Below, piece by piece: positions 35,376 to 56,077 of a stretch of 57,328 nucleotides of DNA. The DNA lies in the NCBI GenBank assembly GCA_018241325.1, contig JAFEEB010000041.1, positions 23,020-80,347 on the forward strand. The letters run 5' to 3'. The notes under the pieces are model-generated. The model did no database searches, was not told the origin of the DNA, and saw only the letters and a program-made list of their open reading frames with translations. Position 1 is the first letter of the stretch; each line of letters begins with the position of its first letter. The position numbers were made by a program, and so were the translations under genes. Source of the stretch: Pseudomonadota bacterium (GTDB lineage Bacteria > Pseudomonadota > Gammaproteobacteria > Burkholderiales > Burkholderiaceae_C).

Positions 35376-35563
35376 TCAACCGGGCTTCTTCTCGCGCGGC
35401 ACCCGCCCCATCAGATAGAACTCGGGGTTGGGCATCATGTTGCTGAACGAGGCGATGCGGTTTGAGAGGCCAAAAAAGCGCCGTGATGGCGGCGATGTCC
35501 CAGATGTCCACGTTGTGCAGGCAGTGCGCATGCATCGGCGCGGAGTCTTCCTCGCCCAACTCG
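35376..35563 (-). pseudogene. Truncated, frameshifted AhpD-like gene: left boundary of the island
   Basis: About 188 bp closely similar to the 3' end of the intact gene at 55481-56077 (same orientation). In translation it reads HNVDIWDIAAITA, then a frameshift at an A-rich run (35472-35477, one extra base), then FFGLSNRIASFSNMMPNPEF and YLMGRVPREKKPG to a stop. Similarity stops abruptly at about 35563, ten bases before the stop codon of the Bug-protein gene. The two copies differ at roughly one base in eight, so the duplication is not recent or the copies have different origins. Confidence 0.85.
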
Positions 35564-35572
35564 GCCCGTTTC

Positions 35573-36547
35573 TCACGTCAGCTTGACATTGGCCTTGCGA
35601 ATGATGTTTCCCCACTTCTCGAACTCGGCCCGTGCGTAGCTTTGTGCTGTCGCCGGCGTGGAATTCGGTGTCGGCTCGAGGCCGGACTCGATCATCTTGC
35701 TTCGCATGATGGGTTCCAGTTGGCTCTTGTTGAGTTCGACGGCAAGTCGGTCAACGATGGCCTGTGGCGTTCCCCGCGGTACGGCGAATGCGGCCCATGC
35801 AGTGGCATCAAAACCTGGATAGAACTCTGCAACGGTGGGTACGTCTGGCAATTGCGAGTACCGTGCCGGCGAGCTCACGGCCAGCGCGCGCAACTGGCCG
35901 CTGCGGACGTACCGCAACGCTGCCGACGTGGTTTCGAACATGGTCTGGATTTGGCCGCCCATCAGGTCGGTCAGCGCCGGCGCGGCGCCCTTGTAAGGTA
36001 CGTGCAGCAGCCGTGCTCCCGAAATGAGCTTGAACATTTCCATCGCCAGGTGATTCGTCACGCCGTTGCCGCCCGAGCCGCAGGCCAATTCTTTCTGCTT
36101 GGCGGCCGTCACCAGATCGGGCAGAGTCTTGATTGCGGAATCCGACCGCACCAGCAAAATCAGCGGCGAGCGACCGACCAAGGCCATGGTATTGAGATCG
36201 TTCATCGGATCAAAGCCGAGACTGGCGTACAGGTGTGGCGCGATGGTGAGCGGGCCACTGGATGTAAACAGCAAGCTATAGCCGTCTGGAGCAGATTTGG
36301 CAACGTCGCGCGCGGCGAGCGTGGCTCCGGCCCCAGGTCGGTTGTCCACCACGAAGGGCTGACCGAACGCCTTGTTGAGGTCATCGGCATAGAGACGCGC
36401 CGCCACGTCACTGCCTTGGCCGGGAGGAAACCCCAGGATGATCTTGACGGCCCGTTGCGGCCATTCGCCTGCGCTGCCCTGTGCCCACGCTGAGTGGCAA
36501 AGCGCACCGAGTGCCGCACTGGCGAGCAAAAGCCTGCGGTTGAACAT
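35573..36547 (-). CDS. Bug/TctC family substrate-binding protein (island)
   Basis: A 324-residue periplasmic binding protein. Signal peptide NRRLLLASAALGALCHSAWAQ; mature motifs VKIILGFPPGQGSDVAARLY, FVVDNRPGAGATLAARDVAK, ACGSGGNGVTNHLAMEMFK and LPDVPTVAEF. The start at 36547 has an AAAAGGAGA site; the frame extends upstream without family similarity. It diverges from the CitE-like gene across a 208-bp region with two copies of the island palindrome, so it is probably under the same control as the catabolic genes and may bring in their carboxylate substrate. Confidence 0.92.
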   Translation of the reverse strand: MFNRRLLLASAALGALCHSAWAQGSAGEWPQRAVKIILGFPPGQGSDVAARLYADDLNKAFGQPFVVDNRPGAGATLAARDVAKSAPDGYSLLFTSSGPLTIAPHLYASLGFDPMNDLNTMALVGRSPLILLVRSDSAIKTLPDLVTAAKQKELACGSGGNGVTNHLAMEMFKLISGARLLHVPYKGAAPALTDLMGGQIQTMFETTSAALRYVRSGQLRALAVSSPARYSQLPDVPTVAEFYPGFDATAWAAFAVPRGTPQAIVDRLAVELNKSQLEPIMRSKMIESGLEPTPNSTPATAQSYARAEFEKWGNIIRKANVKLT

Positions 36548-36664
36548 GCGGGTCTCCTTTTGATCCATTTCACGTTTCGCACGCAATGCAACCGTGCTTT
36601 GGTGATCCATTACAGAGGGCAGCGCCACAAAGGGCAAGAGGGATGACCATCGCCGGCGCCAAGC

Positions 36665-36678
36665 ATCATGGACGTGAT
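36665..36678. promoter_or_regulatory. Island palindrome, site 1 (one mismatch)
   Basis: ATCATGGACGTGAT matches ATCAC-N4-GTGAT with one mismatch. It lies between the divergent Bug-protein and CitE-like genes, 25 bp from site 2 (start to start). Confidence 0.5.
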
Positions 36679-36689
36679 GAATCCCAGCC

Positions 36690-36703
36690 ATCAGAAGTGT
36701 GAT
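36690..36703. promoter_or_regulatory. Island palindrome, site 2 (one mismatch)
   Basis: ATCAGAAGTGTGAT, one mismatch to ATCAC-N4-GTGAT, about 52 bp upstream of the CitE-like gene at 36756. Pairs with site 1 at 36665. Confidence 0.5.
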
Positions 36704-36755
36704 GAATGCGGTTGCTGGTGCCCGTTTTGCGTGTTGTTTTGCACAATGGTGAGCT

Positions 36756-37643
36756 ATGGAACCCATTCATCTTCGTCGCAGCGCGCTGTACACGCCTGGC
36801 TCGAATCCGGCCGTCTTGCTGAAGGCCGCCCAGTCCGATGCCGATGTGTTGATCTTCGATCTCGAAGACGCTGTTGCGCCGGAAGCCAAAGCCACGGCCC
36901 GCGACGCAGTGATCCGCGCATTGGCCGAGGCGGGTGTTGCCCGGCGAACGGTGGTTGTCCGTGTCAACGCCATCGATTCGCCCTGGTGTGAGGGCGACGT
37001 ACGCGCCGTGGCGTCGCTTCCACTCGCCGGCATCCTGTTTCCGAAGATCAGCACGCCTGCTGACGTGATGCGCGCGCAAGCGATGTTGAACTCTTGTGGT
37101 GCACCAGCCAGCACGACGCTGTGGTGCATGATCGAGACGCCGCTGGCCATCGTCAACGCGCGAGCGATTGCGCAAGTCGCGCTGGATCCGGATGCCCGAA
37201 TGTCGACCTGGGTTCTGGGCACCAACGACCTGGTCATGGACCTGCGCGGGCGGCATACGCCCATGCGAGAAGGCCTGGTGCCGATATTGGCCATTGCGTT
37301 GCTCGCTGCGCGTGCCCATGGACTATGCGTGTTCGACGGCGTGCACAACGACATCCGGGATACGGCGAGTTTTGCGGCGACGTGTGAGCAGGGGCGGCAA
37401 ATGGGTTTCGACGGGCGCACGCTGATTCATCCAGCGCAGATCGAGGTCTGCCACCGCGCCTACTCACCCAGTGCACAGGAGGTGGACGAAGCCCGTGCGG
37501 TGGTGGAGGCCTTCGCACTACCCGGGAACCAGGGCAAAGGCGTGCTGAAGGTAGACGGGCGAATGGTGGAGCTGATGCATGCAGAGATCGCGCGTCAGAC
37601 GCTGGCGATTGACGAGGCCATCAAACGGGCGAAGCGGGGATGA
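36756..37643 (+). CDS. CoA ester lyase (HpcH/HpaI aldolase, CitE-like)
   Basis: A 295-residue TIM-barrel lyase of the CitE/malyl-CoA lyase family: RSALYTPGSNPAVLLKAAQ, the Mg-binding VLIFDLEDAVAPEAK, VVVRVNAIDSPWCEGDV, MIETPLAIVNA (acidic ligand) and FDGRTLIHPAQIEVCHRAY. Such enzymes split 3-hydroxy-acyl-CoA esters (malyl-, citramalyl-, beta-methylmalyl-CoA) into acetyl- or propionyl-CoA plus an oxoacid. It is one of two CitE-like proteins in the island; the other is at 51538. It stands alone, divergent from the Bug-protein gene. Confidence 0.9.
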   Translation: MEPIHLRRSALYTPGSNPAVLLKAAQSDADVLIFDLEDAVAPEAKATARDAVIRALAEAGVARRTVVVRVNAIDSPWCEGDVRAVASLPLAGILFPKISTPADVMRAQAMLNSCGAPASTTLWCMIETPLAIVNARAIAQVALDPDARMSTWVLGTNDLVMDLRGRHTPMREGLVPILAIALLAARAHGLCVFDGVHNDIRDTASFAATCEQGRQMGFDGRTLIHPAQIEVCHRAYSPSAQEVDEARAVVEAFALPGNQGKGVLKVDGRMVELMHAEIARQTLAIDEAIKRAKRG

Positions 37644-37679
37644 CGATCAAGTGCGGACAGGCAGGGGATCCACGCCGCT

Positions 37680-39113
37680 TCAGAGCCGCACCGTGATGCA
37701 CTTGACGTGCGTGTAGTGGTGCAATGCTTCCAGCCCCTTTTCGCGTCCATAACCGCTCAGCTTGTAGCCGCCCAGTGGGGTTTCCACGCCGCCCGCCATG
37801 TATTCGTTGACGTAGACCTGCCCCGCTTCCAGCTGGGCCGCCACGCGGTGCGCACGCGCCAAGTCCCTTGTCCAGATACCGGCAGCGAGGCCGTAGTCGG
37901 TGTCGTTCGCGATGGCTATGGCGTGCGCTTCGTCGTCGAAGGGTATGACGCAACCGACCGGACCGAAAACTTCCTCACGCGCGATGCGCATGTGGTTGTC
38001 GACGCCGGTATAGAGCGTGGGCGAAACGTACCAGCCGCCTGCCAGTGCCGGGTCGTCGGGCAGCCGGCCACCGACTTCGGCGACGGCGCCTTCCGCCTGC
38101 GCGATGGCGTAATAGGCCTGAACTTTTTCGTACTGCGCGCGAGTGGTCATGGGGCCGACAGTGCCGTCTGCCGCACCGACGCGGTACGCCGCCATGGCCT
38201 GCTTGGTCGCAGCGACAAACTCGTCGTGGATCGAGCACTCGACCAGGATGCGCGTGCCCGCCAGGCAAACTTGGCCCGCGTGCGTGAGAAAGCCCTTGAG
38301 CACGCCCGGTGCGGCCAGTGTGAGGTCGGCGTCCGCGAACACGATGTCCGGCGACTTGCCACCCAGCTCCAGCGTCAGCGGCAGCACGCGGTCGGCAGCG
38401 ATGCGGCCGATCTCCTGACCTGCGCGCAGCGAACCGGTGAAGGCGATCTTGCGCACACCTGGATGGCGCACCAGCGCCTCGCCGGCCTCGGGGCCGATGC
38501 CGGTGACCACGTTGAACACGCCCGCTGGCACGCCGCAGCCTATCAAGAGGCGCGCCAGCGCAAGCACCGAGCTGGAGGTTGCCTCTGACGGTTTGACAAC
38601 CACGGTGTTGCCGGCAGCCAGCGCCGGCGCACATCCGCGGGCGCTTTGGTTCAGCGGCGCGTTCCACGGGACGATCACGCCCACCACGCCATAGGGTTCG
38701 CGCCTTGTGTAGGCGTGATAGCCAGCCCCAAGGCCGATGGTTTCACCCTGCAGCGCGGTGGCCAGACCGCCATACAGTTCAAAGTACTGCGCGACGCCCT
38801 CGATCTCGCCCAATGCCTGCGGAGACGACTTGCCGGTTTCCCGTGATTCCAGTGCCGCCAATTCGCGCGCTTGTGCGCGAATGGCTTGCGCAGCCTGTGT
38901 CAGCAACCGGCCGCGCGCCAGCGGCCGCATGGCACTCCACGAGGCAAACGCGCGCTGCGCCGCAGCCACTGCGAGGGCAACGTCGTCCTGGTCTCCGCGT
39001 GCCACCTGACTGATGACTTGGCCCGTGCGCGGATTGAAGCCGTCGACGTAACGGCCACGGATCGGCGTGTGCTCTTCGCCGCCAATGAAATGGTTAAGCG
39101 TGTACTGCGTCAT
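37680..39113 (-). CDS. Aldehyde dehydrogenase (NAD-dependent)
   Basis: A 477-residue ALDH superfamily enzyme: PWNAPLNQSARGCAPALAAG (NAD-binding loop), KPSEATSSSVL, FTGSLRAGQEIGR, the catalytic Glu in LELGGKSPDIVF and the nucleophile Cys in GQVCLAGTRIL, and EVFGPVGCVIPF. It converts an aldehyde to the acid. AGGAGAGG precedes the ATG at 39113. It overlaps the GMC oxidoreductase gene by 20 bp, so alcohol and aldehyde oxidation are encoded as a pair at the end of the Liv-transporter operon. Confidence 0.94.
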   Translation of the reverse strand: MTQYTLNHFIGGEEHTPIRGRYVDGFNPRTGQVISQVARGDQDDVALAVAAAQRAFASWSAMRPLARGRLLTQAAQAIRAQARELAALESRETGKSSPQALGEIEGVAQYFELYGGLATALQGETIGLGAGYHAYTRREPYGVVGVIVPWNAPLNQSARGCAPALAAGNTVVVKPSEATSSSVLALARLLIGCGVPAGVFNVVTGIGPEAGEALVRHPGVRKIAFTGSLRAGQEIGRIAADRVLPLTLELGGKSPDIVFADADLTLAAPGVLKGFLTHAGQVCLAGTRILVECSIHDEFVAATKQAMAAYRVGAADGTVGPMTTRAQYEKVQAYYAIAQAEGAVAEVGGRLPDDPALAGGWYVSPTLYTGVDNHMRIAREEVFGPVGCVIPFDDEAHAIAIANDTDYGLAAGIWTRDLARAHRVAAQLEAGQVYVNEYMAGGVETPLGGYKLSGYGREKGLEALHHYTHVKCITVRL

Positions 39114-40764
39114 CTCGAACCTCTCCTGAAACCGGCCGCGTCTCGTGCTGGAAATCCTCAAAAATCATGTCGGCGGCCTTCTCGGCGATCATGACGGTGG
39201 GCGCGTTGACGTTGCCGCGCACGATCTGCGGGATGACGGACGCATCAACCACGCGCAATCGCGGCACCCCATGCACGCGCAACCTGGCATCGACGACCGC
39301 CTGCGGCCCCGTTCCCATGGCGCAGGTGCCCACCGGGTGATACAGCGACTGACTGCTGCGGCGCACGAAGTCAATGACCTCGTCATCGCCGTTTACCTTG
39401 TCACCTGGCAGGTCTTCGCGCACGATGAGATCAGCCAGTGGCTGCGCCGATGCGATGCTCCGAATCCAGCGCATGGCGGCAATCATGACGCGCTCATCCT
39501 CGGGCTCGGCCAGATAGTTCGCGTAAATCATCGGCGGGACCTGCGGATCGGCCGAACGCAATGCGATGTGCCCGCGCGAGCGCGGCTGCAGCATGGCGCT
39601 GGCAAATTGGATGCCCGGGAAGGGGTGCATGCGCAAATGGTTGTTCGAATCGAAGGCGAAGCTCAGTGGCCGAAAGCTGACTTGGATATCGGGCAGTGCC
39701 ATCAGCACACCACTGCGCACGAAAGCCACCGCGTGCGAGGTGCCCATGGCCAACGGGCCGCGATGGTGCAGCAAATATGACGCGCCTTGCACGTACTTGC
39801 GCCAACCCGACAGTGCGGCGTTCAGCGACGCGCCCGCACGCACCTCATAGCCCGCGTTGATGACCAGGTGGTCATGCAAATTGGCACCCACACCCGGAAG
39901 TGCCCGAACCATCGGGATGCCGTGAGTTTGCAATTGCTCCGGGGCACCGATGCCTGACAGCATCAGCAATTGCGGCGATCCCATGGCCCCGGCGCAGATC
40001 AAGACCTCGCGCCGGGCGTGCGCCGTGTGACTGACGCCGCCCTGGCTGAATTCCACTCCGATGGCGCTCCCATTTTCAAATCGAATCCGGGTCGCCAGGG
40101 CGCCACCAACGACGCGCAGGTTGAACCGGCTGCGCGCAGGCGCCAAATAGGCGCGCGCCGTGGTCGAGCGCCGGCCGTCGCCGATGGTGTGCTGGAGGTA
40201 ACCCGCGCCATCCAACGTGGCTCCAGCGATGTCCGGATTCCGCGGGATGCCTGCGGCAATGCAGGCCTGCACAAAAGCATCCGTGGTCGGATGCTGATGA
40301 TCGGGGAGCGACACGCGCAACGGCCCCTCATGGCCACGCCAGGCGCTGTCGCCGTTGTCGCTGGTTTCTGCGCGCCGAAAGTACGGCAGCACGTCTTGCC
40401 AAGACCAGCCACGGTTGCCCATCGCCTGCCAGCGGTCGTAGTCACTCGCGCAACCGCGCACGTAGGCCATGCCGTTGATGGCGCTGGAGCCGCCGATGAT
40501 CTTGCCGCGCGGCCAATAGATGCGCCGGCCTGCAAGATGAGGCTCGGGTTCGGTGAGGGATTTCCAGTTGATGCGCTCGTCGAAAAACACGTTGCCGACG
40601 CCGGCCGGCGTGCGTACCCAGAATGGTTCGGAATCGGGGCCTGCTTCCAGCAGCAGCACGCTGGCACCCGGCTGTGCGCTGAGGCGATTGGCCAACACGC
40701 AACCGGCCGAGCCGCCCCCCACGACGATGTAGTCGTGTTCAAGCGCGAGATTCGAAGCGTTCAT
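39094..40764 (-). CDS. GMC family FAD-dependent alcohol dehydrogenase/oxidoreductase
   Basis: A 556-residue choline-dehydrogenase-like flavoprotein. FAD-binding motif DYIVVGGGSAGCVLANRLS at the N-terminus, then LLLEAG, PRGKIIGGSSAINGMAYVRG, and the C-terminal active-site pair His in SLYHPVGTCAMG and Asn in RGNVNAPTVMIAEKAADMI. It oxidises a primary alcohol to an aldehyde, probably passing electrons to a quinone or another carrier, with the adjacent ALDH finishing the step to the acid. Relatives with ALDH partners act on polyethylene glycols and branched diols, so those are candidate substrate types. Confidence 0.93.
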   Translation of the reverse strand: MNASNLALEHDYIVVGGGSAGCVLANRLSAQPGASVLLLEAGPDSEPFWVRTPAGVGNVFFDERINWKSLTEPEPHLAGRRIYWPRGKIIGGSSAINGMAYVRGCASDYDRWQAMGNRGWSWQDVLPYFRRAETSDNGDSAWRGHEGPLRVSLPDHQHPTTDAFVQACIAAGIPRNPDIAGATLDGAGYLQHTIGDGRRSTTARAYLAPARSRFNLRVVGGALATRIRFENGSAIGVEFSQGGVSHTAHARREVLICAGAMGSPQLLMLSGIGAPEQLQTHGIPMVRALPGVGANLHDHLVINAGYEVRAGASLNAALSGWRKYVQGASYLLHHRGPLAMGTSHAVAFVRSGVLMALPDIQVSFRPLSFAFDSNNHLRMHPFPGIQFASAMLQPRSRGHIALRSADPQVPPMIYANYLAEPEDERVMIAAMRWIRSIASAQPLADLIVREDLPGDKVNGDDEVIDFVRRSSQSLYHPVGTCAMGTGPQAVVDARLRVHGVPRLRVVDASVIPQIVRGNVNAPTVMIAEKAADMIFEDFQHETRPVSGEVRDDAVHA

Positions 40765-40783
40765 GACGGGTCATCCGGATTAA

Positions 40784-41506: not shown

Positions 41507-41570
41507 TGCGTCTCCTCGCGCAGAAGCGCACTTCGCAACGGCTTCCACTGACGCTCGGGTCGGGTCAAGG

Positions 41571-42316
<746 letters not shown>

Positions 42317-46678: not shown

Positions 46679-48097
46679 GTGAATCAAGAAACCGTCATGC
46701 AACGCGCACTCCAAACCGCACCGAAATCGTCCGCTGCCGATTCGCTCACGGCGGCGCTGGTGGCGCACGCCAGTGCGCTGGCGCGGGGCCCGTTGGACGC
46801 GGACACCATCGAGCGGGCGCGCCAGTGCGTGCTTGACTGGAGCGGCGCGGCGCTGGCGGGATCAAGCGAACCGCTCGCGCAAATCCTCTTGGCCCAGGCG
46901 CATGTGGATGGCGGCAAGCCGATCGCTTCCATCGTCCAGGGCGGGTGCCGACTGAGCATCCGGCAGGCGGCGCTCATCAACGGCGCGGCCGGCCATGCGC
47001 TGGACTACGACGACGCCAACGTGGCGGCTCAGGGTCATGTGACCGCCGCAGTGCTGCCGGCCGCCATGGCGGTTGCCGAAGCGCGCGGCGCGAGCGGCGC
47101 CGCGCTGCTGCGTGCATTTGTCGCCGGCTACGAGATGGCCGGTCGAGTCGGTCAATACCTGGGGCGCGCGCATTACGACCGCGGATTTCACGGAACCGTC
47201 ACGATCGGCAGCTTCGGCGCGGCGTGCGCCGCGTCGATGCTGATGGATCTGGACAACGCCACAACCGCGGTGGCGCTGGGCATTGCCGGCACCCAGGCGG
47301 GCGGCGTGAAAGCCCAGTTCGGCACCATGTGCAAGCCGCTGCACGCGGGAAAGGCCGGCGAGAACGGCGTCACCGGCGCACAGCTTGCCGCGCGTGGCTT
47401 CACCGGCTGCGCCGATTTACTGGAAGCGGTGCAGGGCTATGGCGCTGCGATGAGCCCGAGTGTCGACACGCAAGCTGCCTTGGCAAGACCTTCGGGCGGC
47501 AGCCATCTGCACAATAACCTCTTCAAATATCACGCGGCCTGTTTCGGTACGCACGCCTCTATTGAAGCGGTGCGTGCGCTGTGCGAAACGCACCACTTGA
47601 CGCCGTCCGACATCGAAAGGATCGTTCTCGAAGTGGAACCCGATGCGCAACGCATGTGTGACATTGCGCGGCCCGCCACGGGATTGCAGGCCAAGTTCAG
47701 CTTGCGGCTGAATGCCGCGCTCGCGGTGTTCGACGAAAACACGGCTGCGCCGCAGACCTACAGCGACGCCACCGCGGGCCGCACGGACCTGGCGGCGTTG
47801 CGGGATCGGGTCCAGGTGCGTTTCATGCCCCAGGACTGGCCGCGCATGACGGCAGCGGTGCACATCACGACGCGCGACGGACGCACGCTGGAAGGCCGCC
47901 ACGACAGCAGCGTGCCCGACACCGATCTGAAGCATCAGCGCGAACGGCTGGAGCAGAAATTCAAGGCGTTGGCCGAGCCCCAGGTCGGCGCCCGCCGTGC
48001 TGCGGAAATCATGCGTGCCATCGGTGCGCTGGAACACATGAAGGACGTCGGAGAGCTGATGTCCCTGCTTCGCCAGTCCCGGAGGACCGTTTCATGA
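46679..48097 (+). CDS. MmgE/PrpD family protein
   Basis: A 472-residue member of the 2-methylcitrate dehydratase/cis-aconitate decarboxylase family: INGAAGHALDYDDANVAAQGHVTAAVLPAAMAVAEARG is the conserved active-site region, with QFGTMCKPLHAGKAGENGV and HNNLFKYHAACFGTH further on. Family members dehydrate or decarboxylate tricarboxylates, or racemise dicarboxylates. The start used is GTG 46679; ATG at 46697 is an alternative. Its neighbours resemble the itaconate degradation region of Pseudomonas aeruginosa, which as I recall also contains an MmgE/PrpD gene. Confidence 0.9.
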   Translation: MNQETVMQRALQTAPKSSAADSLTAALVAHASALARGPLDADTIERARQCVLDWSGAALAGSSEPLAQILLAQAHVDGGKPIASIVQGGCRLSIRQAALINGAAGHALDYDDANVAAQGHVTAAVLPAAMAVAEARGASGAALLRAFVAGYEMAGRVGQYLGRAHYDRGFHGTVTIGSFGAACAASMLMDLDNATTAVALGIAGTQAGGVKAQFGTMCKPLHAGKAGENGVTGAQLAARGFTGCADLLEAVQGYGAAMSPSVDTQAALARPSGGSHLHNNLFKYHAACFGTHASIEAVRALCETHHLTPSDIERIVLEVEPDAQRMCDIARPATGLQAKFSLRLNAALAVFDENTAAPQTYSDATAGRTDLAALRDRVQVRFMPQDWPRMTAAVHITTRDGRTLEGRHDSSVPDTDLKHQRERLEQKFKALAEPQVGARRAAEIMRAIGALEHMKDVGELMSLLRQSRRTVS

Positions 48098-48585
48098 GTC
48101 AAGACGTCATCGCCCGCGCCCAGCCGCGCGACAAGGGCCACTGGTACGAGGATTTCGAGCCTGGGCGCGTATTCGTGCACCACTGGGGCCGCACCCTCTC
48201 GCAGGCCGAAAATGCGCTGTTTACCACGTTGACGCTGCACTTCAACCCGCAGTACACCAACGTGGAAGTGGCGCGTGCCATGGGCCACCCGGATACACCC
48301 GTCAATCCGCTGCTGGTGTTCAACACGGTGTTCGGTCTGTCGGTGCAGGACCTGAGCGAGCATGGAACGGCCTTTCTCGGCGTCGATGAGCTGCGCTATC
48401 CGCGCGCCTTTTATCCGGGCGACACCCTGTTTGCGCGTTCCACGGTATTGGATCGGCGTTTGTCCACGAGCCGCAAGAATTTGGGCATTGTGGGTTGGCA
48501 CACACAGGGCTTCAATCAGCGGGATGAATTGGTGTGCGAGTTTCATCGCTCCAACCTGGTGTTTCTGCGCGGAGATGCCGCATGA
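48094..48585 (+). CDS. MaoC family dehydratase (first copy)
   Basis: A 163-residue hot-dog fold protein: GRVFVHHWGRTLSQAENALF (N-terminal), NPLLVFNTVFGLSVQDLSEHGTAFLG and YPRAFYPGDTLFARSTVLDRR. This resembles hydratases of mesaconyl/itaconyl-CoA type, which add water across the double bond of unsaturated dicarboxylyl-CoA esters. Overlaps the MmgE/PrpD gene before it (ATGA) and the acyl-CoA dehydrogenase gene after it. Confidence 0.88.
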   Translation: MSQDVIARAQPRDKGHWYEDFEPGRVFVHHWGRTLSQAENALFTTLTLHFNPQYTNVEVARAMGHPDTPVNPLLVFNTVFGLSVQDLSEHGTAFLGVDELRYPRAFYPGDTLFARSTVLDRRLSTSRKNLGIVGWHTQGFNQRDELVCEFHRSNLVFLRGDAA

Positions 48586-49739
48586 ACGGTTCGTACATGA
48601 CCGAGGATCGCCGCATGATCCAGGAGCAGGCGCGCGAATTCACGATGCGCGAGGTGCTCCCGGTGGCGAACAAGCTGGACCCGGAGAAGGGCGACATTCC
48701 CATGTCGCTGCGCGAGAAGATGGCCGAGATGGGCTACTTCGGCATCCTCATCGACGAGGAATACGGCGGTCTGGGCTTGGGGGTGTTCGAGTACTGCCTC
48801 GTGACCGAGGAGTTGGCGCGCGGCTGGATGAGCGTGGCTTCGCTGCTCGCGCGCGCCAATGGCTTGCCGGGCATGGAAAAGCTATCGCCCGAACGCCGCG
48901 CCGAGCTGCTGCCGCGCGTCGCGCGCGGTGAGTGTCTGGGTGCTTTCGCGCTGTCGGAGCCCAGCGCGGGTTCGGATGTGGCCAACATCAGCTGCCGCGC
49001 GCGCCGCGATGGCGATGGGTGGGTGATCCACGGCAACAAGTACTGGTGCACCTTTGCTGACGGCGCCGACTACCTGATCGTGATCGCGCGCACCAGCGCG
49101 CCTGTGCCCGAAAAGAGGCACAAGGGTTTGTCGGCTTTCATGATCCCCAAGCAACGCGGCGGGTTGCCCCCGGGCCTGCACGGCGCACCCATCCCCAAGA
49201 TCGGCTATTTCGGCTGGAAGACGTGGGAGCTGTCATTCGACGAGTTTCGCGTGCCGGCCGATGCGCTGCTGGGCGAGGAGGGCGAGGGCTTTTATCTGGC
49301 CACGCAGGGGCTGGAGAAGGCGCGTGCCCACACGGCCGCGCGCGCCATCGGTCTGGCGCGCGGTGCCTTCGAGGACGCGTTGGCCTACGCGCAGGAGCGC
49401 GAGCAATTTGGTGCACCCATTGCGCAGTTCCAGGCCATCCGTTTCAAGCTGGCGCAGATGGCGACCGAGATTGAAGCCGCACGCCAACTCAACTACCACG
49501 TGTGCACGCAGATCGACAGCGGCGGACGCTGCGACCTGGAGGCTTCGATGACCAAGCTGTTCGCCACCGAGATGGCCGAGCGCGTGACCAGCGAGGGCCT
49601 GCAGATTCACGGCGGTGCGGGCTACACAACGCTGCACGCGGCCGAGCGCTACTGGCGCGACGCGCGTTTGACGAAGATTTTCGAGGGCACGTCCGAGATT
49701 CAGCAACGGATCATCTCGGACCGCCTTCTCGGCAAGTGA
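48582..49739 (+). CDS. Acyl-CoA dehydrogenase (island)
   Basis: A 385-residue flavoenzyme of the standard acyl-CoA dehydrogenase family: FALSEPSAGSDVANISCRAR, WVIHGNKYWCTFADGADYLIV, GEGFYLATQGLEKARAHTAA and the catalytic Glu368 in KIFEGTSEIQQRI. It introduces the alpha-beta double bond into a short-chain acyl-CoA, feeding the MaoC hydratases on either side. ATGA overlap with the first MaoC gene; the longer upstream frame is inside that gene. Confidence 0.94.
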   Translation: MNGSYMTEDRRMIQEQAREFTMREVLPVANKLDPEKGDIPMSLREKMAEMGYFGILIDEEYGGLGLGVFEYCLVTEELARGWMSVASLLARANGLPGMEKLSPERRAELLPRVARGECLGAFALSEPSAGSDVANISCRARRDGDGWVIHGNKYWCTFADGADYLIVIARTSAPVPEKRHKGLSAFMIPKQRGGLPPGLHGAPIPKIGYFGWKTWELSFDEFRVPADALLGEEGEGFYLATQGLEKARAHTAARAIGLARGAFEDALAYAQEREQFGAPIAQFQAIRFKLAQMATEIEAARQLNYHVCTQIDSGGRCDLEASMTKLFATEMAERVTSEGLQIHGGAGYTTLHAAERYWRDARLTKIFEGTSEIQQRIISDRLLGK

Positions 49740-49774: not shown

Positions 49775-50254
49775 ATGCAACTCAATCAGCTGACCGAGCG
49801 CGACAACTACTTCGAGGATTTCGTCGTCGGCGACGTGATGAAACACGTGCGCTCCAAGACGCTGGAGCCGCTGGAGCAGGTGCTGATCACCAACATGGTG
49901 ATGAACACCGCCTCGGGTCACTTCGACGAGGAGGTGATGAAGTCGCACCCCATGGGCAAGCGCCTGTCATTCGGTGGCGTGAACATCGCGATGTTCGTGG
50001 GCATGGCCAGCCAGGACACGGCGGAGAACGCCATTGCCGAACTGGGCATGGACAAGATTCGACTGCAGGGACCGGTTTTTCATGGCGACACGCTCACGGC
50101 CTATACCGAAGTGCTGGAGGTGGGCCCTGCCGAGCGCGAGGATGCAGGCATCGTGCGGTTCAGACACATTGGCACCAAACAGGACGGCAGCATCGTGTTC
50201 GAGGGTGAGCGTACCGTGCTCATCAAGCGGCGTTCGCACTGGGGAGCGCGTTGA
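49775..50254 (+). CDS. MaoC family dehydratase (second copy)
   Basis: A 159-residue hot-dog protein: NYFEDFVVGDVMKHVRSKTL, NTASGHFDEEVMKSHPMGKRL, and IRLQGPVFHGDTLTAYTEVLEVG. The HGDTL motif is typical of MaoC-type hydratases. AAGGAGCGGGCC lies before the ATG. It is only distantly similar to the first MaoC protein, so the two may act as a heteromer or on different intermediates. Overlaps the CoA transferase gene. Confidence 0.9.
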   Translation: MQLNQLTERDNYFEDFVVGDVMKHVRSKTLEPLEQVLITNMVMNTASGHFDEEVMKSHPMGKRLSFGGVNIAMFVGMASQDTAENAIAELGMDKIRLQGPVFHGDTLTAYTEVLEVGPAEREDAGIVRFRHIGTKQDGSIVFEGERTVLIKRRSHWGAR

Positions 50255-51477
50255 TGGCTGCCGCCGGTTTTGGCGCGCTGCATGGCGTACGCGTCATCGA
50301 CTTCACGCAGATGCTGGCTGGGCCGTTCTGTACTCAGCTGCTGGCAGATCAGGGTGCTGACGTTGTCAAGGTTGAGCCATTGAAGGGCGATGACTGCCGC
50401 ATTGCCGGGCCTTACCACCCGGACGACAGCCTGCGTGCGTTCGGGGGGTATTTCGCTTCAGTGAATCGCAACAAGCGCTCGATTTGTTTGGATCTCAAGG
50501 ATTCGGACGCCCGCGAAGTCGTGCTTGACCTGGTTCAGGATGCCGACGTCGTTGTGGAGAATTTCCGCGCCGGTGTGATGGAGCGGTTGGGCCTTGGATA
50601 CGAGACGCTGCGCGAGCGCAATCCGAAGTTGGTGTATGCGGCCATCCGTGGTTTTGGCGATCCGCGTACGGGTAAAAGCCCATACTCTGAATGGCCTGCC
50701 TACGACGTGATCGCGCAGGCCATGGGCGGACTCATGCAGATCAATGGTCCAGATTCTCAGACGCCGTTGAAGGTGGGCCCCGGCGTGGGTGACCTCTATC
50801 CCGCCACGCTATGTGCTTTCGGCATCACGGCCGCGTTGCTGCACGCCGGGCGTACGGGACAGGGTCAGTTTCTGGACGTGGCGATGGTGGATGCGGTATT
50901 GGCGCTGTGCGAACGCACCATATATCAAAATGCCTATCAGGGATTGGTGCCCCACCCTGACGGCAACCGACATCCGTTGTTGTCACCGTTTGGGTTGTTC
51001 AAGGCCAAGGATGGTTTCGTCACGCTCGCTGCACACTTTGACGCTTGGTGGGCCAAGCTGTGCGAGCTGATTGGTCGACCAGATCTGGTGAGGGATCCGC
51101 GCTGTGCCACGGCTGAAGCCCGTGTGGCCAACCGTGACTTTGTGTATGGCCAGTTGGAGCTGTTTACGGCGGCTCACACCAAGGCCGAATTGGCCAGCTT
51201 GTTGGGCGGCCAAATTCCTTTCGGCCCCGTGAATAACGTCGCCGAAATCGTGGCTGACCCGCACTTTGCCATACGCGAGATGGTGGTCGAGGTCGAGCAC
51301 CCCGGCGTGGTGCAACCCATGCGCGTCGCTGGCATCCCGGTGAAGATGACCGACACACCCGGCCGCGTGGTGCGCCGTGCGCCACTGGCGGGTGAGCAAA
51401 CGGACGAAATCCTGCGTGAGGTTGGCCTGAACGAATCACGGATCACAGATTTGCACGCACGCCACGTAGTCCGCTGA
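50254..51477 (+). CDS. CoA transferase, CaiB/BaiF family (class III)
   Basis: A 407-residue class III CoA transferase: GVRVIDFTQMLAGPFCTQLLADQGADVVKVE is the conserved N-terminus, NRNKRSICLDLKD follows, and GVGDLYPATLCAFGITAAL contains the predicted catalytic aspartate. It moves CoA between an acyl-CoA donor and a carboxylic acid, e.g. from succinyl-CoA to itaconate, mesaconate or a similar acid. The ATG overlaps the previous stop codon (TTGATG). Confidence 0.93.
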   Translation: MAAAGFGALHGVRVIDFTQMLAGPFCTQLLADQGADVVKVEPLKGDDCRIAGPYHPDDSLRAFGGYFASVNRNKRSICLDLKDSDAREVVLDLVQDADVVVENFRAGVMERLGLGYETLRERNPKLVYAAIRGFGDPRTGKSPYSEWPAYDVIAQAMGGLMQINGPDSQTPLKVGPGVGDLYPATLCAFGITAALLHAGRTGQGQFLDVAMVDAVLALCERTIYQNAYQGLVPHPDGNRHPLLSPFGLFKAKDGFVTLAAHFDAWWAKLCELIGRPDLVRDPRCATAEARVANRDFVYGQLELFTAAHTKAELASLLGGQIPFGPVNNVAEIVADPHFAIREMVVEVEHPGVVQPMRVAGIPVKMTDTPGRVVRRAPLAGEQTDEILREVGLNESRITDLHARHVVR

Positions 51478-51537
51478 CGCGCACTCGCGCGTAATCCGAC
51501 GGCAAGATTCATCAACCAGCAACAGGGCTTTTCAAGC

Positions 51538-52458
51538 ATGTCCAACACCCGTCCACGACGCGCGCGGCGCGTGCAGCTTTCCACCCCCGGTTCGTCCGAG
51601 AAAATGATGACCAAGGCAGCGGCGAGCGCGGCCGATCATGTGTTTCTGGACCTGGAGGACGCGGTCGCCCCCAATCAAAAGGTGGCTGCGCGCAGCAAGA
51701 TCGTCGAAGCGCTCAATACGTTGGACTGGACGGGCAAGGTTCGGTGCGTGCGCATCAATGACCTGTCGACCCAGTACGCCTACGAGGACATCATCGAAGT
51801 GGTCGAAGGGGCAGGTGCCAATCTTGACACCATCATGATGACCAAGGTCACCAGCGCTGCGGACATCCTGTTTGCGGATCGCTTGCTGGGCATGATGGAA
51901 AAAAAACTCAAACTGCCGCGTCGGATCGGGCTGGAGGCGCTGATTGAAGAAGTGGAGGGCATGCAGAATATCGAATCGATTGCCCGTGCGTCGGATCGGC
52001 TGGAGTGCCTGGTTTTTGGGATGGGCGATTTTTCGGCATCGATGGGCATCAGCCTGGACGCGGTGATCGGCAGCGATGGCGGCTATCCTGGCGACATGTG
52101 GCATTACGCGCGTTTCAGGTTGGTGATGGCCTGTCGCGCGGCCGGGTTGGACCCGGTGGACGGCCCCTATGCGGATTTTCGCAACGAGGCGGGTTACCGC
52201 GAAGAGTGCCGCCGCGCTGGCACCTTGGGCATGGTCGGCAAGTGGGCCATCCACCCAAGCCAGATCGTCGTGGCGCGCGACGCCTTCAGCCCCGATCCGG
52301 CACGTGTGGCCAGTGCGCGCCGGGTGGTCAGTGCCTATGCCGAAGCGGAGGCCGCAGGGGCGGGCTCTATCAACGTTGATGGCGTGATGGTGGATGTGGC
52401 CACCGTGCGGCTGCTGCGCAACGGGATTTTGCGCAAGGCCGAGCTGTACGGGATATAG
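51538..52458 (+). CDS. CoA ester lyase (HpcH/HpaI, malyl/citramalyl-CoA lyase-like)
   Basis: A 306-residue TIM-barrel lyase: RVQLSTPGSSEKMMTKAAAS, DHVFLDLEDAVAPNQKVAAR (Mg ligands), RIGLEALIEEVEGMQNIESIA, FGMGDFSASMGI and KWAIHPSQIVVARDAFSP. This subgroup includes L-malyl-CoA/beta-methylmalyl-CoA and citramalyl-CoA lyases, the last step of the proposed pathway. Follows the CoA transferase and is only 3 bp from the IclR regulator gene. Confidence 0.92.
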   Translation: MSNTRPRRARRVQLSTPGSSEKMMTKAAASAADHVFLDLEDAVAPNQKVAARSKIVEALNTLDWTGKVRCVRINDLSTQYAYEDIIEVVEGAGANLDTIMMTKVTSAADILFADRLLGMMEKKLKLPRRIGLEALIEEVEGMQNIESIARASDRLECLVFGMGDFSASMGISLDAVIGSDGGYPGDMWHYARFRLVMACRAAGLDPVDGPYADFRNEAGYREECRRAGTLGMVGKWAIHPSQIVVARDAFSPDPARVASARRVVSAYAEAEAAGAGSINVDGVMVDVATVRLLRNGILRKAELYGI

Positions 52459-52461
52459 GCA

Positions 52462-53283
52462 ATGGCGGCGGAAAGCAAACCAGCAAAACGCGTGTCCGGC
52501 GCGTCGGCTCGTGAGTTTGAGGGCGTCATCAAGTCCGCCAAGAGGGTGCTCGAACTCTTTGAGTATTTTGCCGAATGCCGCCGCCCCTTGTCCGTGACGG
52601 ATCTGGTGCGCGGCTTGGACTATCCGCAGTCGAGTGCCTCGGTTCTGCTCAAAAGTCTGACGCGACTGGGCTATCTGGACTACGACCGACAAAAGCGCCT
52701 GTATAGGCCCACTTTGCGTGTGGCCTTGCTTGGAGGTTGGGTACACGATCAGTTGTTCAGCCACGCAAGCCTGTCGCACTTGATCGATGACTTGCACCTT
52801 GTCAGCGGAGGTGAGGCCGTGATTTTGGGGATGCAGAACGACATTTATGTCCAATACATCCACCTCGTTCAGTCGCGGCACCAGCAGGTTGCATCGTGGT
52901 ACATCAAGCCGGGGTCGTTGCGCCCGTTGTGCCGATCGGCCGTCGGCCGTATTTTGCTGAGCCGCAAGCCCGATGTGGAAGTGCAGCAGTTGCTGTGGCG
53001 CATCAATGCGGAGGAGGAGCCGCATCTGCGCATGCACGTGGGTGACCTTCTGAAGGAGCTCGACCGTATCCGTCGAGACGGCTACGCTTACACCGAGGGC
53101 ACCGTGAATTCTGAGGTGGGCGTGCTGGCCGTGGAGATGCCTACGCCGGCCAGCCAGCCGTCGATGGCCTTGGGAATCGGCGGCCAGATTCAGACCTTGC
53201 GCCACGAGCGCGAGCGCTACCTTGCGTTGCTTCGCGAGGCTTTACAACCCTATCGGGCAAGCACGAGTTCCGGAAATACATGA
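52462..53283 (+). CDS. IclR family transcriptional regulator
   Basis: A 273-residue regulator with an N-terminal winged helix (SAKRVLELFEYFAECRRPLS then VTDLVRGLDYPQSSASVLLKSLTRLGYLDYD, about residues 22-75) and a C-terminal effector domain (YIKPGSLRPLCRSAVGRILLS; RIRRDGYAYTEGTVNSEVGVLAVEMP). IclR proteins act as repressors or activators of catabolic genes. It is encoded in the middle of the island, at the end of the plus-strand operon, making it the best candidate reader of the five ATCAC-N4-GTGAT sites. Confidence 0.93.
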   Translation: MAAESKPAKRVSGASAREFEGVIKSAKRVLELFEYFAECRRPLSVTDLVRGLDYPQSSASVLLKSLTRLGYLDYDRQKRLYRPTLRVALLGGWVHDQLFSHASLSHLIDDLHLVSGGEAVILGMQNDIYVQYIHLVQSRHQQVASWYIKPGSLRPLCRSAVGRILLSRKPDVEVQQLLWRINAEEEPHLRMHVGDLLKELDRIRRDGYAYTEGTVNSEVGVLAVEMPTPASQPSMALGIGGQIQTLRHERERYLALLREALQPYRASTSSGNT

Positions 53284-53322
53284 ATCGCCCGCCTGCAGGA
53301 TTGGTTGTTTGATTGGCGCCCT

Positions 53323-53337
53323 TCCGGCCTTGCCGGA
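53323..53337. terminator. Hairpin between convergent IclR and acyl-CoA ligase genes
   Basis: TCCGGCCTTGCCGGA, a 6-bp perfect stem with a 3-nt loop, placed between the two convergent stop codons (53283 and 53339). It lacks a T run, so it is a weak candidate bidirectional terminator. Confidence 0.35.
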
Positions 53338-53338
53338 T

Positions 53339-54967
53339 TCATATCTTGCGTGCATGCCCAGCCCAATAACCATCGCGGATTTCACGTTTGAGCGCCTTGC
53401 CGACGGGACTGCGCGGAAGCTGCTTGCGAAACTCCACACTCTTGGGCGTCTTCACGCCGCCAAGACGAGGCCGGCATGCGGCAATGACGTCGCTCTCCGT
53501 CAAAGATGTGCCAGGTTTGATTTGCACCACGGCGTGCACGGCCTCGCCCCACTTCTCGTCGGGCACGCCGATCACGACGCAGTCTTGCACTTGGGGTAGC
53601 GCTAGGATCACCTGCTCGACTTCCGCCGAATAAACATTGAAGCCTCCCGTGACGATCATGTCTTTCTTGCGGTCGACGATTTGCAGGTATCCGTTGACAT
53701 CGAGACGGCCGATGTCGCCGGTATGGTGCCAGCCGTGCTGCGATACCTCGGCGGTGGCCTCCGGGTTCTTGTAGTACCCCTTCATCACGAAGTCGCCCCG
53801 CACGACGATCTCGCCGACCTGACCTTGCGCCAGGAGGTGGCCCGCATCGTCCATGATCCCAATCTTCGAAAACGGCGTCGCTCTGCCGCAACTCGACAAC
53901 CGCTCGTCGTCCGCGATTTCGCCTCCCAGCTTGCCGTCCTTAAAGTGATCCTCGCGCGACAAGTACGCAATCAGCATCGGCGCCTCGGTCTGACCGTAGC
54001 CCTGGGTCATGACCGGCCCGAACACCGTGATCGCCTCTTTGAGCTTGTATACCGACATTGGGGCCCCGCCGTAAGTGAAGTACTTGAGCGAGGAATAGTC
54101 GACGTCACGGACATTCGGCTGCATGAGCAGGGTGTAGATCGCAGTCGGCGGCAGAAACATGCGCGAGACGCGGTATTTCGAAATGGCCGCAAGAATCGCC
54201 TGTGGTTCGGCACTGCCCAGGATCACCACCGTGCCGCCCCGGCGCATGACCGGAAAGCAAAATCGCCCCCCCACATGCGTCATCGGTGCCGCAGCCAGAT
54301 ACACGGGCTCGCGATCGTCCGCAAACTGCCACTCGACTCCATCGCAGAACGTGATGAAGTTCTTGTGTGTCAGCATCACGCCTTTGGGCTGCCCGGTGGT
54401 GCCTCCGGTCGCGCTCATGATGGCCACGGCGTCGGGGCTCAGTGCAGGCGTCGCGAAATGGGCAGAAAACCTCGCCGCCCACGCGAGCAGATCGGGAGCA
54501 TCGTCCCACGGACGGTCAATGCAAATAGCGCGACGTATGCTGGGCGCCTGCGCGCGCAGTTCGGCCACGACGCCCGAGAACGCATGGTGGAAGAACAGCA
54601 CGTCGCAGTCGAAGTCGCGCAGGGTGCGCGAAGTCTCGTCAGTCGCATTGCGCGCGTTGAGCGACAGCCAGACGCCGCCGGCACGCAGGATGCCGAGCAC
54701 GCAGACAAAGGCGTACGGGTGATTGGTGCTGAGCACCGCGGCATGCGCGCCGAGCCCGAATCCTTCGGCCTCGAGTCCTGCTGCAATTTGGTTTGTCAGT
54801 GCCTGGACTTCGGAGTAGTTCAGGCTGTGCTCGCCGTCCTGCAGGCAAGTGCGTTGCGGATAGCGATCGGCCCCTTCGTCGAAGATGTCGATGGCACACG
54901 CTGCTCGCGGACTCGCGGTGCTGTACGCTGGCCCGGTGTTTTCACTCACGCCGAACTCCTGATGCAT
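53339..54967 (-). CDS. AMP-forming acyl-CoA ligase (island)
   Basis: A 542-residue ANL superfamily ligase: IMSATGGTTGQPKGVMLTHK (P-loop, about residue 185), TQGYGQTEAPM, HTGDIGRLDVNGYLQIVDRK and GGFNVYSAEVEQVI, and the catalytic Lys in SPVGKALKREI near the C-terminus. It converts a free acid, probably the product of the GMC/ALDH pair, to its CoA ester. It is transcribed toward the IclR gene. One perfect island palindrome lies about 210 bp upstream of its start (55179). Confidence 0.93.
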   Translation of the reverse strand: MHQEFGVSENTGPAYSTASPRAACAIDIFDEGADRYPQRTCLQDGEHSLNYSEVQALTNQIAAGLEAEGFGLGAHAAVLSTNHPYAFVCVLGILRAGGVWLSLNARNATDETSRTLRDFDCDVLFFHHAFSGVVAELRAQAPSIRRAICIDRPWDDAPDLLAWAARFSAHFATPALSPDAVAIMSATGGTTGQPKGVMLTHKNFITFCDGVEWQFADDREPVYLAAAPMTHVGGRFCFPVMRRGGTVVILGSAEPQAILAAISKYRVSRMFLPPTAIYTLLMQPNVRDVDYSSLKYFTYGGAPMSVYKLKEAITVFGPVMTQGYGQTEAPMLIAYLSREDHFKDGKLGGEIADDERLSSCGRATPFSKIGIMDDAGHLLAQGQVGEIVVRGDFVMKGYYKNPEATAEVSQHGWHHTGDIGRLDVNGYLQIVDRKKDMIVTGGFNVYSAEVEQVILALPQVQDCVVIGVPDEKWGEAVHAVVQIKPGTSLTESDVIAACRPRLGGVKTPKSVEFRKQLPRSPVGKALKREIRDGYWAGHARKI

Positions 54968-55480
54968 TCACGCGAGGCCCGAACGATCGGTCAGACCGTC
55001 TTGTGAGCCGATTGGAGGAGCTTGTTGAACGCATGAAAACTCGCTGCTCTGCAATGCGTTGGGTTGCACGTGGGCGCAGTTTTGGCGCGTGCAAAACGCG
55101 TGCGACGGTGACAGTATGGACTGCATCGCGTCCGATGTGGATCACCTGGCCGACTGCAAGAACCTGGATGCTTCAGTTATCACGCATGTGATGCAGGAGG
55201 AGGCGAGTCGCATCCGCGAGGCGTTGCTTGAGGCCATGCGGCACAAGCCCTCCCGCGCGCCGCATCCCAGGCCGGTGGCGGCTTGCGGCGTTGAAAATCA
55301 CCGCGCTATCCTGGAATCGCTGCGGCCTTCGACTTGCAGCCCATACCGATCCACGGCGCGTCGCATCACAAAAATTCATTCGGCGCCGTTTGGATAAAGT
55401 CAACCGCCAGAGCGTGTCAGACATGCGCGAGACGCTATGCAAAAAGTAGTATCTCGGGGCTGCAATGCTCCGGCCTTCAA
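54968..55480. other. 513-bp gap at the right end of the island
   Basis: This gap lies between the acyl-CoA ligase start and the end of the intact AhpD-like gene. It contains one perfect ATCAC-N4-GTGAT site. An open frame at 55059-55397 (112 codons, including MDCIASDVDHLADCKNLDAS and a helical stretch) resembles nothing I know and lacks a good ribosome binding site. The last ~80 bases before 55481 adjoin the direct repeat. Likely a promoter region plus relic DNA from the integration event. Confidence 0.4.
55179..55192. promoter_or_regulatory. Island palindrome, site 5 (perfect)
   Basis: ATCACGCATGTGAT, exact match to ATCAC-N4-GTGAT with a GCATGT-containing centre. Upstream of the acyl-CoA ligase gene, the only transcription unit that starts here. 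Confidence 0.55.
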
Positions 55481-56077
55481 TCAACCGGCCTTCTTCTCGC
55501 GCGGCACCCGCCCCATCAAGTAAAACTCGGGGTTGGGCATCATGCTGCTGAACGAGGCGATGCGGTTGGACAGGCCGAAAAACGCCGTGATGGCGGCGAT
55601 GTCCCAGATGTCCTCGTCGTCAAAGCCGTGCGCGTGCAGCGGGGCAAAGTCTTCCTCGCCCAGTTCGTGCGAGCGCTGGCAGACCTTCATCGCAAAGTCG
55701 AGCATGGCCTTCTGGCGCGGCGTGATGTCGGCCTTGCGGTAGTTGGTGGCCACCTGGTCGGTCACCAGCGGCTTTTTCTCGTAGATGCGCAAGAGCGCGC
55801 CGTGCGCCACCACGCAATACAGGCAGCCGTTGGCGCTGCTGGTGGTGGTGACGATCATCTCGCGGTCACCCTTGCTCAGCTTGCTGGTGCGGCCCACGCT
55901 TTCGGGCTCCATCAGCGCGTCGTGATAGGCGAAGAAGGCGCGCCACTCCGCCGGGCGGCGTGCCAGGCCCAGAAACACGTTGGGGATGAAGCCGGCCTTT
56001 TCCTGCACCGCCAAGATCTTGGCCTTGATGTCCTCGGGCAGGCTGTTCAGCTCGGGCAGGGGGTAGCGGGTACTCAT
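55481..56077 (-). CDS. AhpD-like peroxidase-related protein (carboxymuconolactone decarboxylase family)
   Basis: A 198-residue protein with the motif NGCLYCVVAHGALLRIYEKK (CxxC plus His) preceded by KGDREMIVTTTSSA, the active site of AhpD-like peroxidase-related enzymes. Opening: YPLPELNSLPEDIKAKILAV; closing: FFGLSNRIASFSSMMPNPEF then YLMGRVPREKKAG. AAGGAG precedes the ATG at 56077. The last ~62 codons are duplicated, truncated and frameshifted at 35376-35563, so this gene forms the right arm of the direct repeat that flanks the island. Confidence 0.9.
   Translation of the reverse strand: MSTRYPLPELNSLPEDIKAKILAVQEKAGFIPNVFLGLARRPAEWRAFFAYHDALMEPESVGRTSKLSKGDREMIVTTTSSANGCLYCVVAHGALLRIYEKKPLVTDQVATNYRKADITPRQKAMLDFAMKVCQRSHELGEEDFAPLHAHGFDDEDIWDIAAITAFFGLSNRIASFSSMMPNPEFYLMGRVPREKKAG

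What the first reader, a model, noticed from the sequence alone, without database searches (positions are those of the whole stretch)
35376..56077. 20-kb catabolic island flanked by a direct repeat of an AhpD-like gene
The 3' end of the AhpD-like gene (55481-55666) recurs in the same orientation at 35376-35563, truncated and frameshifted, immediately after doxX and 10 bp before the first island gene. Everything between (35573-about 55450) is a self-contained catabolic set with its own regulator. By eye its codon use is less extremely GC-biased than the flanks. The simplest reading is that the ancestral order was doxX - AhpD-like gene - FKBP - scoA, and that incoming DNA integrated at the AhpD-like gene, for example by recombination between two diverged alleles, leaving a broken copy on the left. 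No integrase or transposase is visible, which argues against a standard integrative element.
Basis: partly seen in the sequence, partly recalled or inferred. Interest (0 to 1): 0.75.

Follow-up and report, generated by a model that had tools for sequence, protein, structure and literature searches.

The report
Acquired catabolic gene island beside ahpD
A bacterium seems to have picked up a 20-kb set of genes for breaking down small organic acids, and the DNA went in at the end of a household gene, probably by ordinary recombination, leaving a decaying broken copy of that gene as a scar.

Summary
Window 35375-35558 and 55480-55662 form a 184-bp direct repeat, 89.1% identical. The left copy is a frameshifted, 5'-truncated 3' end of ahpD. 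Between them lie 18 open reading frames for catabolism, transport and regulation, lower in GC and GC3 than their surroundings. The congener nearest by ahpD, G025, shows the predicted empty order: doxX and ahpD convergent, 24 bp apart, no island; its FKBP-scoA lie beyond a transposon-like insert at a contig end. Among 28 other congeners searched, only G012 has the TctC-to-IclR block, collinear but not at ahpD. One module lies on a Variovorax megaplasmid. This is most likely acquired DNA.

Refinement: of 23 columns where the copies differ, 16 are changes only in the broken copy, so the copies need not have been diverged alleles at insertion. The layout fits one-sided homologous integration through about 190 bp of ahpD; an old site-specific insertion whose integrase is gone gives the same layout, and this is not settled. 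The core resembles the itaconate/methylsuccinate pathway but misses its family cut-offs. A good example of a known kind of event.

The parts
34986..35363 (+). doxX, native left neighbour
   Evidence: 82% aa to G025 doxX, which is convergent with ahpD there
35375..35558 (-). 5'-truncated, frameshifted 3' end of ahpD (left repeat copy)
   Evidence: 89.1% to 55480-55662; two out-of-frame pieces in protein search
35558..35633 (-). left junction: 12-bp word at 35558-35569 repeated at 35622-35633 inside TctC
   Evidence: background recurrence of a 12-mer within 20-100 bp is 582 of 593,847 positions
35573..36547 (-). TctC-type substrate-binding protein
   Evidence: PF03401; nucleotide homology to G012 ends at its stop codon
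36756..37643 (+). HpcH/HpaI (CitE-like) lyase 1
   Evidence: PF03328
37680..39113 (-). aldehyde dehydrogenase
   Evidence: PF00171; 87% aa on Variovorax megaplasmid
39094..40764 (-). GMC oxidoreductase (alcohol/choline dehydrogenase-like)
   Evidence: PF00732/PF05199
40784..41548 (-). LivF-type ABC ATPase
   Evidence: PF00005
41571..42323 (-). LivG-type ABC ATPase
   Evidence: PF00005/PF12399
42317..43351 (-). LivM-type permease
   Evidence: PF02653
43364..44272 (-). LivH-type permease
   Evidence: PF02653
44306..45583 (-). LivK-type binding protein
   Evidence: PF13458
45861..46616 (+). DJ-1/PfpI family protein (not found in the 58 kb fetched around the G012 copy)
   Evidence: PF01965
46679..48097 (+). 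MmgE/PrpD family protein
   Evidence: PF03972/PF19305; nearest solved chain by sequence IDS-epimerase
48094..48585 (+). MaoC 1, matches the N-terminal half of mesaconyl-CoA hydratase
   Evidence: PF19315 positions 10-167 of 353
48582..49739 (+). acyl-CoA dehydrogenase
49775..50254 (+). MaoC 2, matches the C-terminal half of mesaconyl-CoA hydratase
   Evidence: PF19315 positions 225-353 of 353
50251..51477 (+). class III CoA-transferase (CaiB)
   Evidence: PF02515; best NCBIfam succinyl-CoA:mesaconate CoA-transferase, 466 bits, cut-off 700
51538..52458 (+). HpcH/HpaI lyase 2 (malyl/beta-methylmalyl-CoA lyase-like)
52462..53283 (+). IclR-family regulator
   Evidence: PF09339/PF01614
53339..54967 (-). 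AMP-forming acyl-CoA ligase (not found in the 58 kb fetched around the G012 copy)
   Evidence: PF00501
55232..55367 (.). degenerate copy of a short interspersed repeat, next to the right edge
   Evidence: six matches in G025, no other in the own genome at E<=0.001
55481..56080 (-). full-length AhpD-like (CMD family) gene; its 3' end is the right repeat copy
   Evidence: PF02627; 91% aa to G025
56199..56618 (+). FKBP-type isomerase, native right neighbour
   Evidence: PF00254
56912..57328 (+). start of scoA-like CoA-transferase subunit; the contig ends here

Best explanation
A 20-kb catabolic island was acquired horizontally and inserted at the 3' end of a native ahpD gene that originally sat between doxX and FKBP-scoA. 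Shown: the repeat, the broken copy, the empty order in a relative (with one contig join resting on a repeat), atypical composition, and a collinear copy of most of the block elsewhere in the congener G012. Inferred: integration used one-sided homology. The incoming DNA carried the end of ahpD (about 190 bp, probably from a close relative) on its acyl-CoA-ligase side and joined ahpD by ordinary crossover; the other end (TctC) became joined to the interior of ahpD illegitimately, either on a circle before a single crossover or directly. This restores one full ahpD (native 5' end, incoming 3' end) and leaves the displaced 3' end beside doxX, where it has since decayed. The genes most likely take up a small acid or alcohol, activate it with CoA, dehydrogenate, hydrate and cleave it, as in degradation of branched C4/C5 dicarboxylates (itaconate, methylsuccinate, mesaconate); the substrate is unknown.
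For: Repeat and broken copy. Empty doxX-ahpD site in G025, with FKBP-scoA on contig C66, whose last about 116 bases recur at the start of the ahpD contig C48. ahpD within about 6 kb of scoA in 15 of 18 congener loci fetched. Of 28 other congeners (16 of them at least 90% complete and at most 5% contaminated), G012 has the collinear block, G002 a 4.1-kb part at 66%, and the other 26 showed no match longer than about 0.8 kb. Composition. ALDH-GMC-Liv module on a Variovorax megaplasmid, 78.6% identical, against 75.3% to the congener G012. Fragment-only changes are spread 7/2/7 over codon positions 1/2/3, while 7 of the 9 columns where G025 stands alone are third positions, as expected if the fragment is unconstrained. 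Precedent: in E. coli, a non-replicating plasmid homologous to the end of lacZ gave, in 56 of 60 Lac-negative clones, the PCR product of a partial lacZ duplication; 14 sequenced ones had 109-950 bp, attributed to single crossover (PMC3240628, passages).
Against: The repeat ends within 2 bp of the ahpD stop codon, which is also what a site-specific element carrying a replacement gene end would give. The donor with ahpD beside the acyl-CoA ligase was not found. Placement of a 189-column fragment is weak: four of the five alternative topologies are not rejected at 0.05, FastTree support for fragment + full is 0.64, and 2 polarised sites unite full with G025 against 4 uniting fragment with full. 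G012's copy is not beside its ahpD. Only one genome shows the doxX-ahpD empty site. 20 kb exceeds the roughly 1-kb inserts that PMC3240628 gives for natural transformation.
Confidence: 0.6

Rival explanations
1. Site-specific integrative element that targets the 3' end of ahpD and carries a replacement 3' end; its integrase was later lost.
For: One intact gene with a 3' fragment on the far side is the classical footprint (recalled); the repeat stops within 2 bp of the stop codon. A mobile island without its own recombinase and with imperfect repeats of 148 and 144 bp exists (H47 GI, PMC5426353, abstract and passages).
Against: No integrase among the 18 proteins. In the list of matches for 59 relatives no separate C-terminal ahpD fragment of 60% identity or more lies away from the main gene. 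The G012 copy of the block is not at ahpD.
Confidence: 0.2
2. The island and the duplication are ancestral to this species and G025, and G025 lost them by recombination between the repeats.
For: Recombination between the direct repeats would regenerate the G025 order.
Against: None of the 15 congener loci with at least 2.8 kb of sequence past ahpD has an island gene there at 40% aa or more. Fragment-only change (16 of 189 columns, 0.085) is about half of what half of the ahpD dS to G025 (0.307) would predict; polarised shared sites are 4 for fragment + full, 2 for full + G025, 1 for fragment + G025, a weak margin.
Confidence: 0.1
3. ahpD was first duplicated in part (for example by template switching at the 12-bp repeat) and the island came in later between the copies.
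For: 12-bp word at the left junction repeated 64 bp further on inside TctC.
Against: Needs two events; the word can be chance (about 1% for some ten junction positions at the rate) and lies partly in island sequence, so it may postdate the insertion.
Confidence: 0.06
4. Assembly artefact: the contig joins unrelated DNA at the repeat.
For: Draft genome of 93 contigs; the contig ends in scoA.
Against: Longest exact run shared by the two copies is 31 bp, short for an assembler's final word size (recalled); left junction continues into the doxX side and right junction into the FKBP side, as in relatives.
Confidence: 0.04

Closest known systems
Genomic islands and integrative elements inserted at the 3' end of a gene
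   Same: One intact gene plus a displaced 3' fragment; atypical composition; accessory catabolic cargo
   Different: No integrase among the 18 proteins and no tRNA in the window; repeat of 184 bp at 89%, not a short identical core
Single-crossover / homology-facilitated illegitimate recombination (PMC3240628)
   Same: Homology at one end only; duplication of part of the target gene (109-950 bp there); microhomology usual at the illegitimate end
   Different: The insert is 20 kb and natural; the event is inferred, not observed
Itaconate/methylsuccinate degradation cluster of Cupriavidus necator and Pseudomonas aeruginosa (PMC12290011)
   Same: Same five families: CoA-transferase, hydratase, acyl-CoA dehydrogenase, MmgE/PrpD, citramalyl-CoA lyase type; a TctC-type gene lies close by in C. 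necator
   Different: Two MaoC genes matching the two halves of mesaconyl-CoA hydratase, a lyase nearer to malyl/beta-methylmalyl-CoA lyase, a second lyase, IclR, alcohol and aldehyde oxidation; scores below the NCBIfam equivalog cut-offs

Membership tests
Genomic island (horizontally acquired block) | Absent from relatives at that site, empty site known | tested here: met
   G025 empty site; no match over about 0.8 kb in 26 of 28 congeners
Genomic island (horizontally acquired block) | Atypical composition | tested here: met
   GC and tetranucleotides more extreme than 31 of 32 own chunks
Integrative element (tyrosine/serine integrase) | Integrase gene at one end | tested here: not met
   No such domain in 18 proteins
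Integrative element (tyrosine/serine integrase) | Short identical att core repeats | tested here: inconclusive
   184 bp at 89%, longest exact run 31 bp
One-sided homologous integration | Target homology at one end, non-homologous join at the other | tested here: met
   Right copy full and continuous with FKBP; left copy cut next to the TctC stop
One-sided homologous integration | Donor molecule with ahpD next to the island end | tested here: inconclusive
   Not seen in 29 genus or 399 family genomes, own included, where only 1-10 first-look candidates per genome were scored
Itaconate/methylsuccinate cluster | Five gene families together | tested here: met
   definition from PMC12290011
Itaconate/methylsuccinate cluster | Equivalog scores for Ich (RipB) and Ccl (RipC) | tested here: not met
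   MaoC1 98 and MaoC2 87 against 340 bits; HpcH2 171 and HpcH1 139 against 375 bits
Itaconate/methylsuccinate cluster | Enzyme activities | not testable with these tools
   needs assays

The most novel reading that the evidence does not exclude
The 20-kb island is a natural case of integrase-free capture by a single crossover through about 190 bp of a household gene, can in principle be lost again through the same repeat, and carries a widespread, uncharacterised branched-dicarboxylate pathway with a split mesaconyl-CoA-type hydratase and a malyl-CoA-type lyase, distinct from the known itaconate/methylsuccinate route.
Probability: 0.3. Interest if true: 0.5.

Novelty: new member of a known kind. 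Interest (0 to 1): 0.38.

Why it matters
It gives a readable scar of how a large catabolic cluster can enter a chromosome without mobility genes of its own: an intact gene, its decaying displaced end and a relative with the empty site. It also points to a cassette (MmgE/PrpD - MaoC - ACAD - MaoC - CaiB - HpcH) seen in Cupriavidus, Hydrogenophaga, Polaromonas, Acidovorax and others whose substrate I could not find established.

Tried and rejected
Insertion through a tRNA gene: no tRNA in the window. Transposon target duplication: 184 bp is far too long (recalled). Whole island as a plasmid piece: the plasmid search gave 42 records with a match, none covering 80% of the query; the best is the ALDH-GMC-Liv module. 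Gene remnants between ligase and ahpD: six-frame reading by eye showed no clear gene; the stretch holds a short interspersed repeat. A tree run with bootstrap timed out and was replaced by a six-topology test with 1,000 replicates, which the program itself calls too few. Paper searches: (gene names of the cassette) found no paper with at least 4 of 6 terms; (catabolic islands, Comamonadaceae) listed 5 papers, none judged relevant from title and start of abstract; some searches gave the three papers cited; passages of PMC2884548 were seen but not used. Composition: three own-genome chunks under 15 kb (L213, L224, L225) were dropped before the count of 32. Family searches list absences with limits: only 1-2 first-look candidates per genome were scored, at E<=1e-40; up to 10, at E<=1e-20. 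(MmgE/PrpD in 299 family genomes, own included, 15 with a match at E<=1e-60) was used only for loci.

Full report
What is there. A 184-bp stretch at window 35375-35558 recurs in the same orientation at 55480-55662 with 89.1% identity, 19 mismatches and one gap. It is the strongest of four self-matches of the window at E<=1e-6, and the own genome holds no third copy beyond a 25-base match. The right copy is the 3' end of a complete AhpD-like gene of the CMD family (55481-56080). The left copy is its last 60-odd codons, frameshifted by one base, starting 11 bp beyond the stop of doxX and ending just before the stop codon of the first island gene.

Between the copies lie 18 open reading frames: TctC, HpcH lyase 1, aldehyde dehydrogenase, GMC oxidoreductase, five Liv-type transport genes, DJ-1/PfpI, MmgE/PrpD, MaoC1, acyl-CoA dehydrogenase, MaoC2, class III CoA-transferase, HpcH lyase 2, IclR and an AMP-forming ligase. 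None is an integrase or transposase.

Composition. Island GC is 0.629 against a mean of 0.680 (SD 0.017) over 32 own-genome chunks of at least 15 kb; one of the 32 is lower. Its tetranucleotide z-score correlation with the rest is 0.807 against a mean of 0.929, again lower in 1 of 32. GC3 is 0.777 against 0.886-0.94 for four flanking genes. The island does not clearly look like G012's genome either: z-score correlation 0.52, although by raw tetranucleotide distance it is slightly nearer to G012 (0.209) than to its own genome (0.237).

Empty site. Of 18 congener ahpD loci fetched, 15 show scoA within about 6 kb of ahpD, 3 show FKBP beside it and one, G025, shows doxX beside it. In G025 the doxX and ahpD stop codons are 24 bp apart with no island. 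The other side of the G025 gene is cut by a contig end. Its FKBP and scoA lie on contig C66, and the last about 116 bases of C66 recur as the first bases of the ahpD contig C48; the 3.5 kb between FKBP and that end begins and ends with the same word in inverted orientation. So G025 reads doxX - ahpD - transposon-like insert - FKBP - scoA, the predicted ancestral order, with the caution that the join of the two contigs rests on a possibly repeated end. For 15 of 17 loci measured at least 2.8 kb of sequence past ahpD was available; none of the 18 loci shows an island gene at 40% aa or more. What follows ahpD differs between groups of congeners, so the ahpD stop is a natural edge of conserved order.

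Where else the island occurs. In 29 genomes of the genus, own included, only G012 has the block from TctC to IclR, collinear at 74-78% nucleotide identity, on contig C5, while its ahpD is on C7. DJ-1/PfpI and the ligase were not found in the 58 kb fetched around it. G002 has a 4.1-kb part at 66%. The other 26 showed no match longer than about 0.8 kb; 16 of the 28 are at least 90% complete and at most 5% contaminated. In 399 family genomes, own included, no other single match exceeded about 4.2 kb, with only 1-2 candidates scored per genome. A Variovorax boronicumulans megaplasmid carries ALDH-GMC-LivFGMHK in the same order. For that module Variovorax is closer to this window (78.6%) than G012 is (75.3%), and closer still to G012 (80.5%), which does not fit descent within the genus alone, though base composition may contribute. 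Core enzymes recur together in many proteobacteria and two actinobacterial MAGs among the best 80 loci of a capped scan; the nearest is a groundwater MAG (L069) with six core genes at 75-90% aa and no MmgE/PrpD found.

How old and how it went in. In 189 aligned columns the fragment alone differs at 16, the full gene alone at 4, all three differ at 3, and fragment and full agree against G025 at 9. Polarised by seven congeners, 4 sites unite fragment and full, 2 full and G025, 1 fragment and G025. Fragment-only changes fall 7/2/7 over codon positions 1/2/3, as in an unconstrained sequence; 7 of the 9 columns where G025 stands alone are third positions. With ahpD dS of 0.307 to G025, 0.085 fragment changes per site put the loss of constraint very roughly halfway since the split from G025 (inference; counting error alone is about 25%). 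The best of six topologies joins fragment and full gene; fragment with G025 is rejected (AU 0.02), full with G025 is not (0.20), and three placements of the fragment further out are not (0.065-0.080), at only 1,000 replicates.

The layout (full gene with native upstream neighbour, cut 3' end with native downstream neighbour) is what a single crossover with a circle carrying only the gene's end gives, or a linear molecule with homology at one end. In E. coli, 56 of 60 Lac-negative clones gave the PCR product diagnostic of such a duplication, and 14 sequenced ones had 109-950 bp; 3-10 bp microhomology is described as usual at the illegitimate junction in HFIR (PMC3240628, passages seen). Here a 12-bp word at the left junction recurs 64 bp further on, inside TctC; background 12-mers recur within 20-100 bp at 582 of 593,847 positions, so about 1% for some ten junction positions, suggestive only. 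The same layout is also the footprint of a site-specific element; with no integrase present I rank that second.

Function. The core contains the five families of the C. necator itaconate/methylsuccinate cluster (PMC12290011; abstract, first of three parts of the results, distribution section and first of two parts of the discussion read). It differs: MaoC1 and MaoC2 match the N and C halves of mesaconyl-CoA hydratase, HpcH2 is nearest among solved chains to malyl/beta-methylmalyl-CoA lyase, and none of the ten island proteins scanned reaches an NCBIfam cut-off in the families shown. A related branched-dicarboxylate pathway fed by alcohol oxidation is the most likely role; the substrate is unknown.

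Noticed in passing
window 34740-34914: Palindromic interspersed repeat with many matches across the genus, where order with G025 breaks between the acyl-CoA dehydrogenase gene (G025 C33) and doxX (G025 C48); a second, inverted copy at 31122-31298.
   Followed up: partly
window 55232-55367: Short interspersed repeat with six matches in G025 and no other match in the own genome at E<=0.001.
   Followed up: partly
L222 (G000:C77:10001-30000): Only own-genome chunk of 32 with lower GC than the island (0.618) and the most atypical tetranucleotides: perhaps another island.
   Followed up: no
L273, about 8460-11982 (G025 C66 end): About 3.5-kb stretch with terminal inverted words between FKBP and the contig end that leads to ahpD in G025; by eye its first reading frame looks like a phage-integrase-type recombinase (recalled, not searched).
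   Followed up: partly
L044 10462-10536; L036 1422-1498: G020 has tRNA-Arg(CCT) about 110 bp past ahpD, G025 has tRNA-Val(GAC) beside doxX: tRNA genes border this variable site in these relatives but not in the window.
   Followed up: no
window 6683-6768 and 19219-19304: Second direct repeat of the window, 88 aligned bases at 83%.
   Followed up: no
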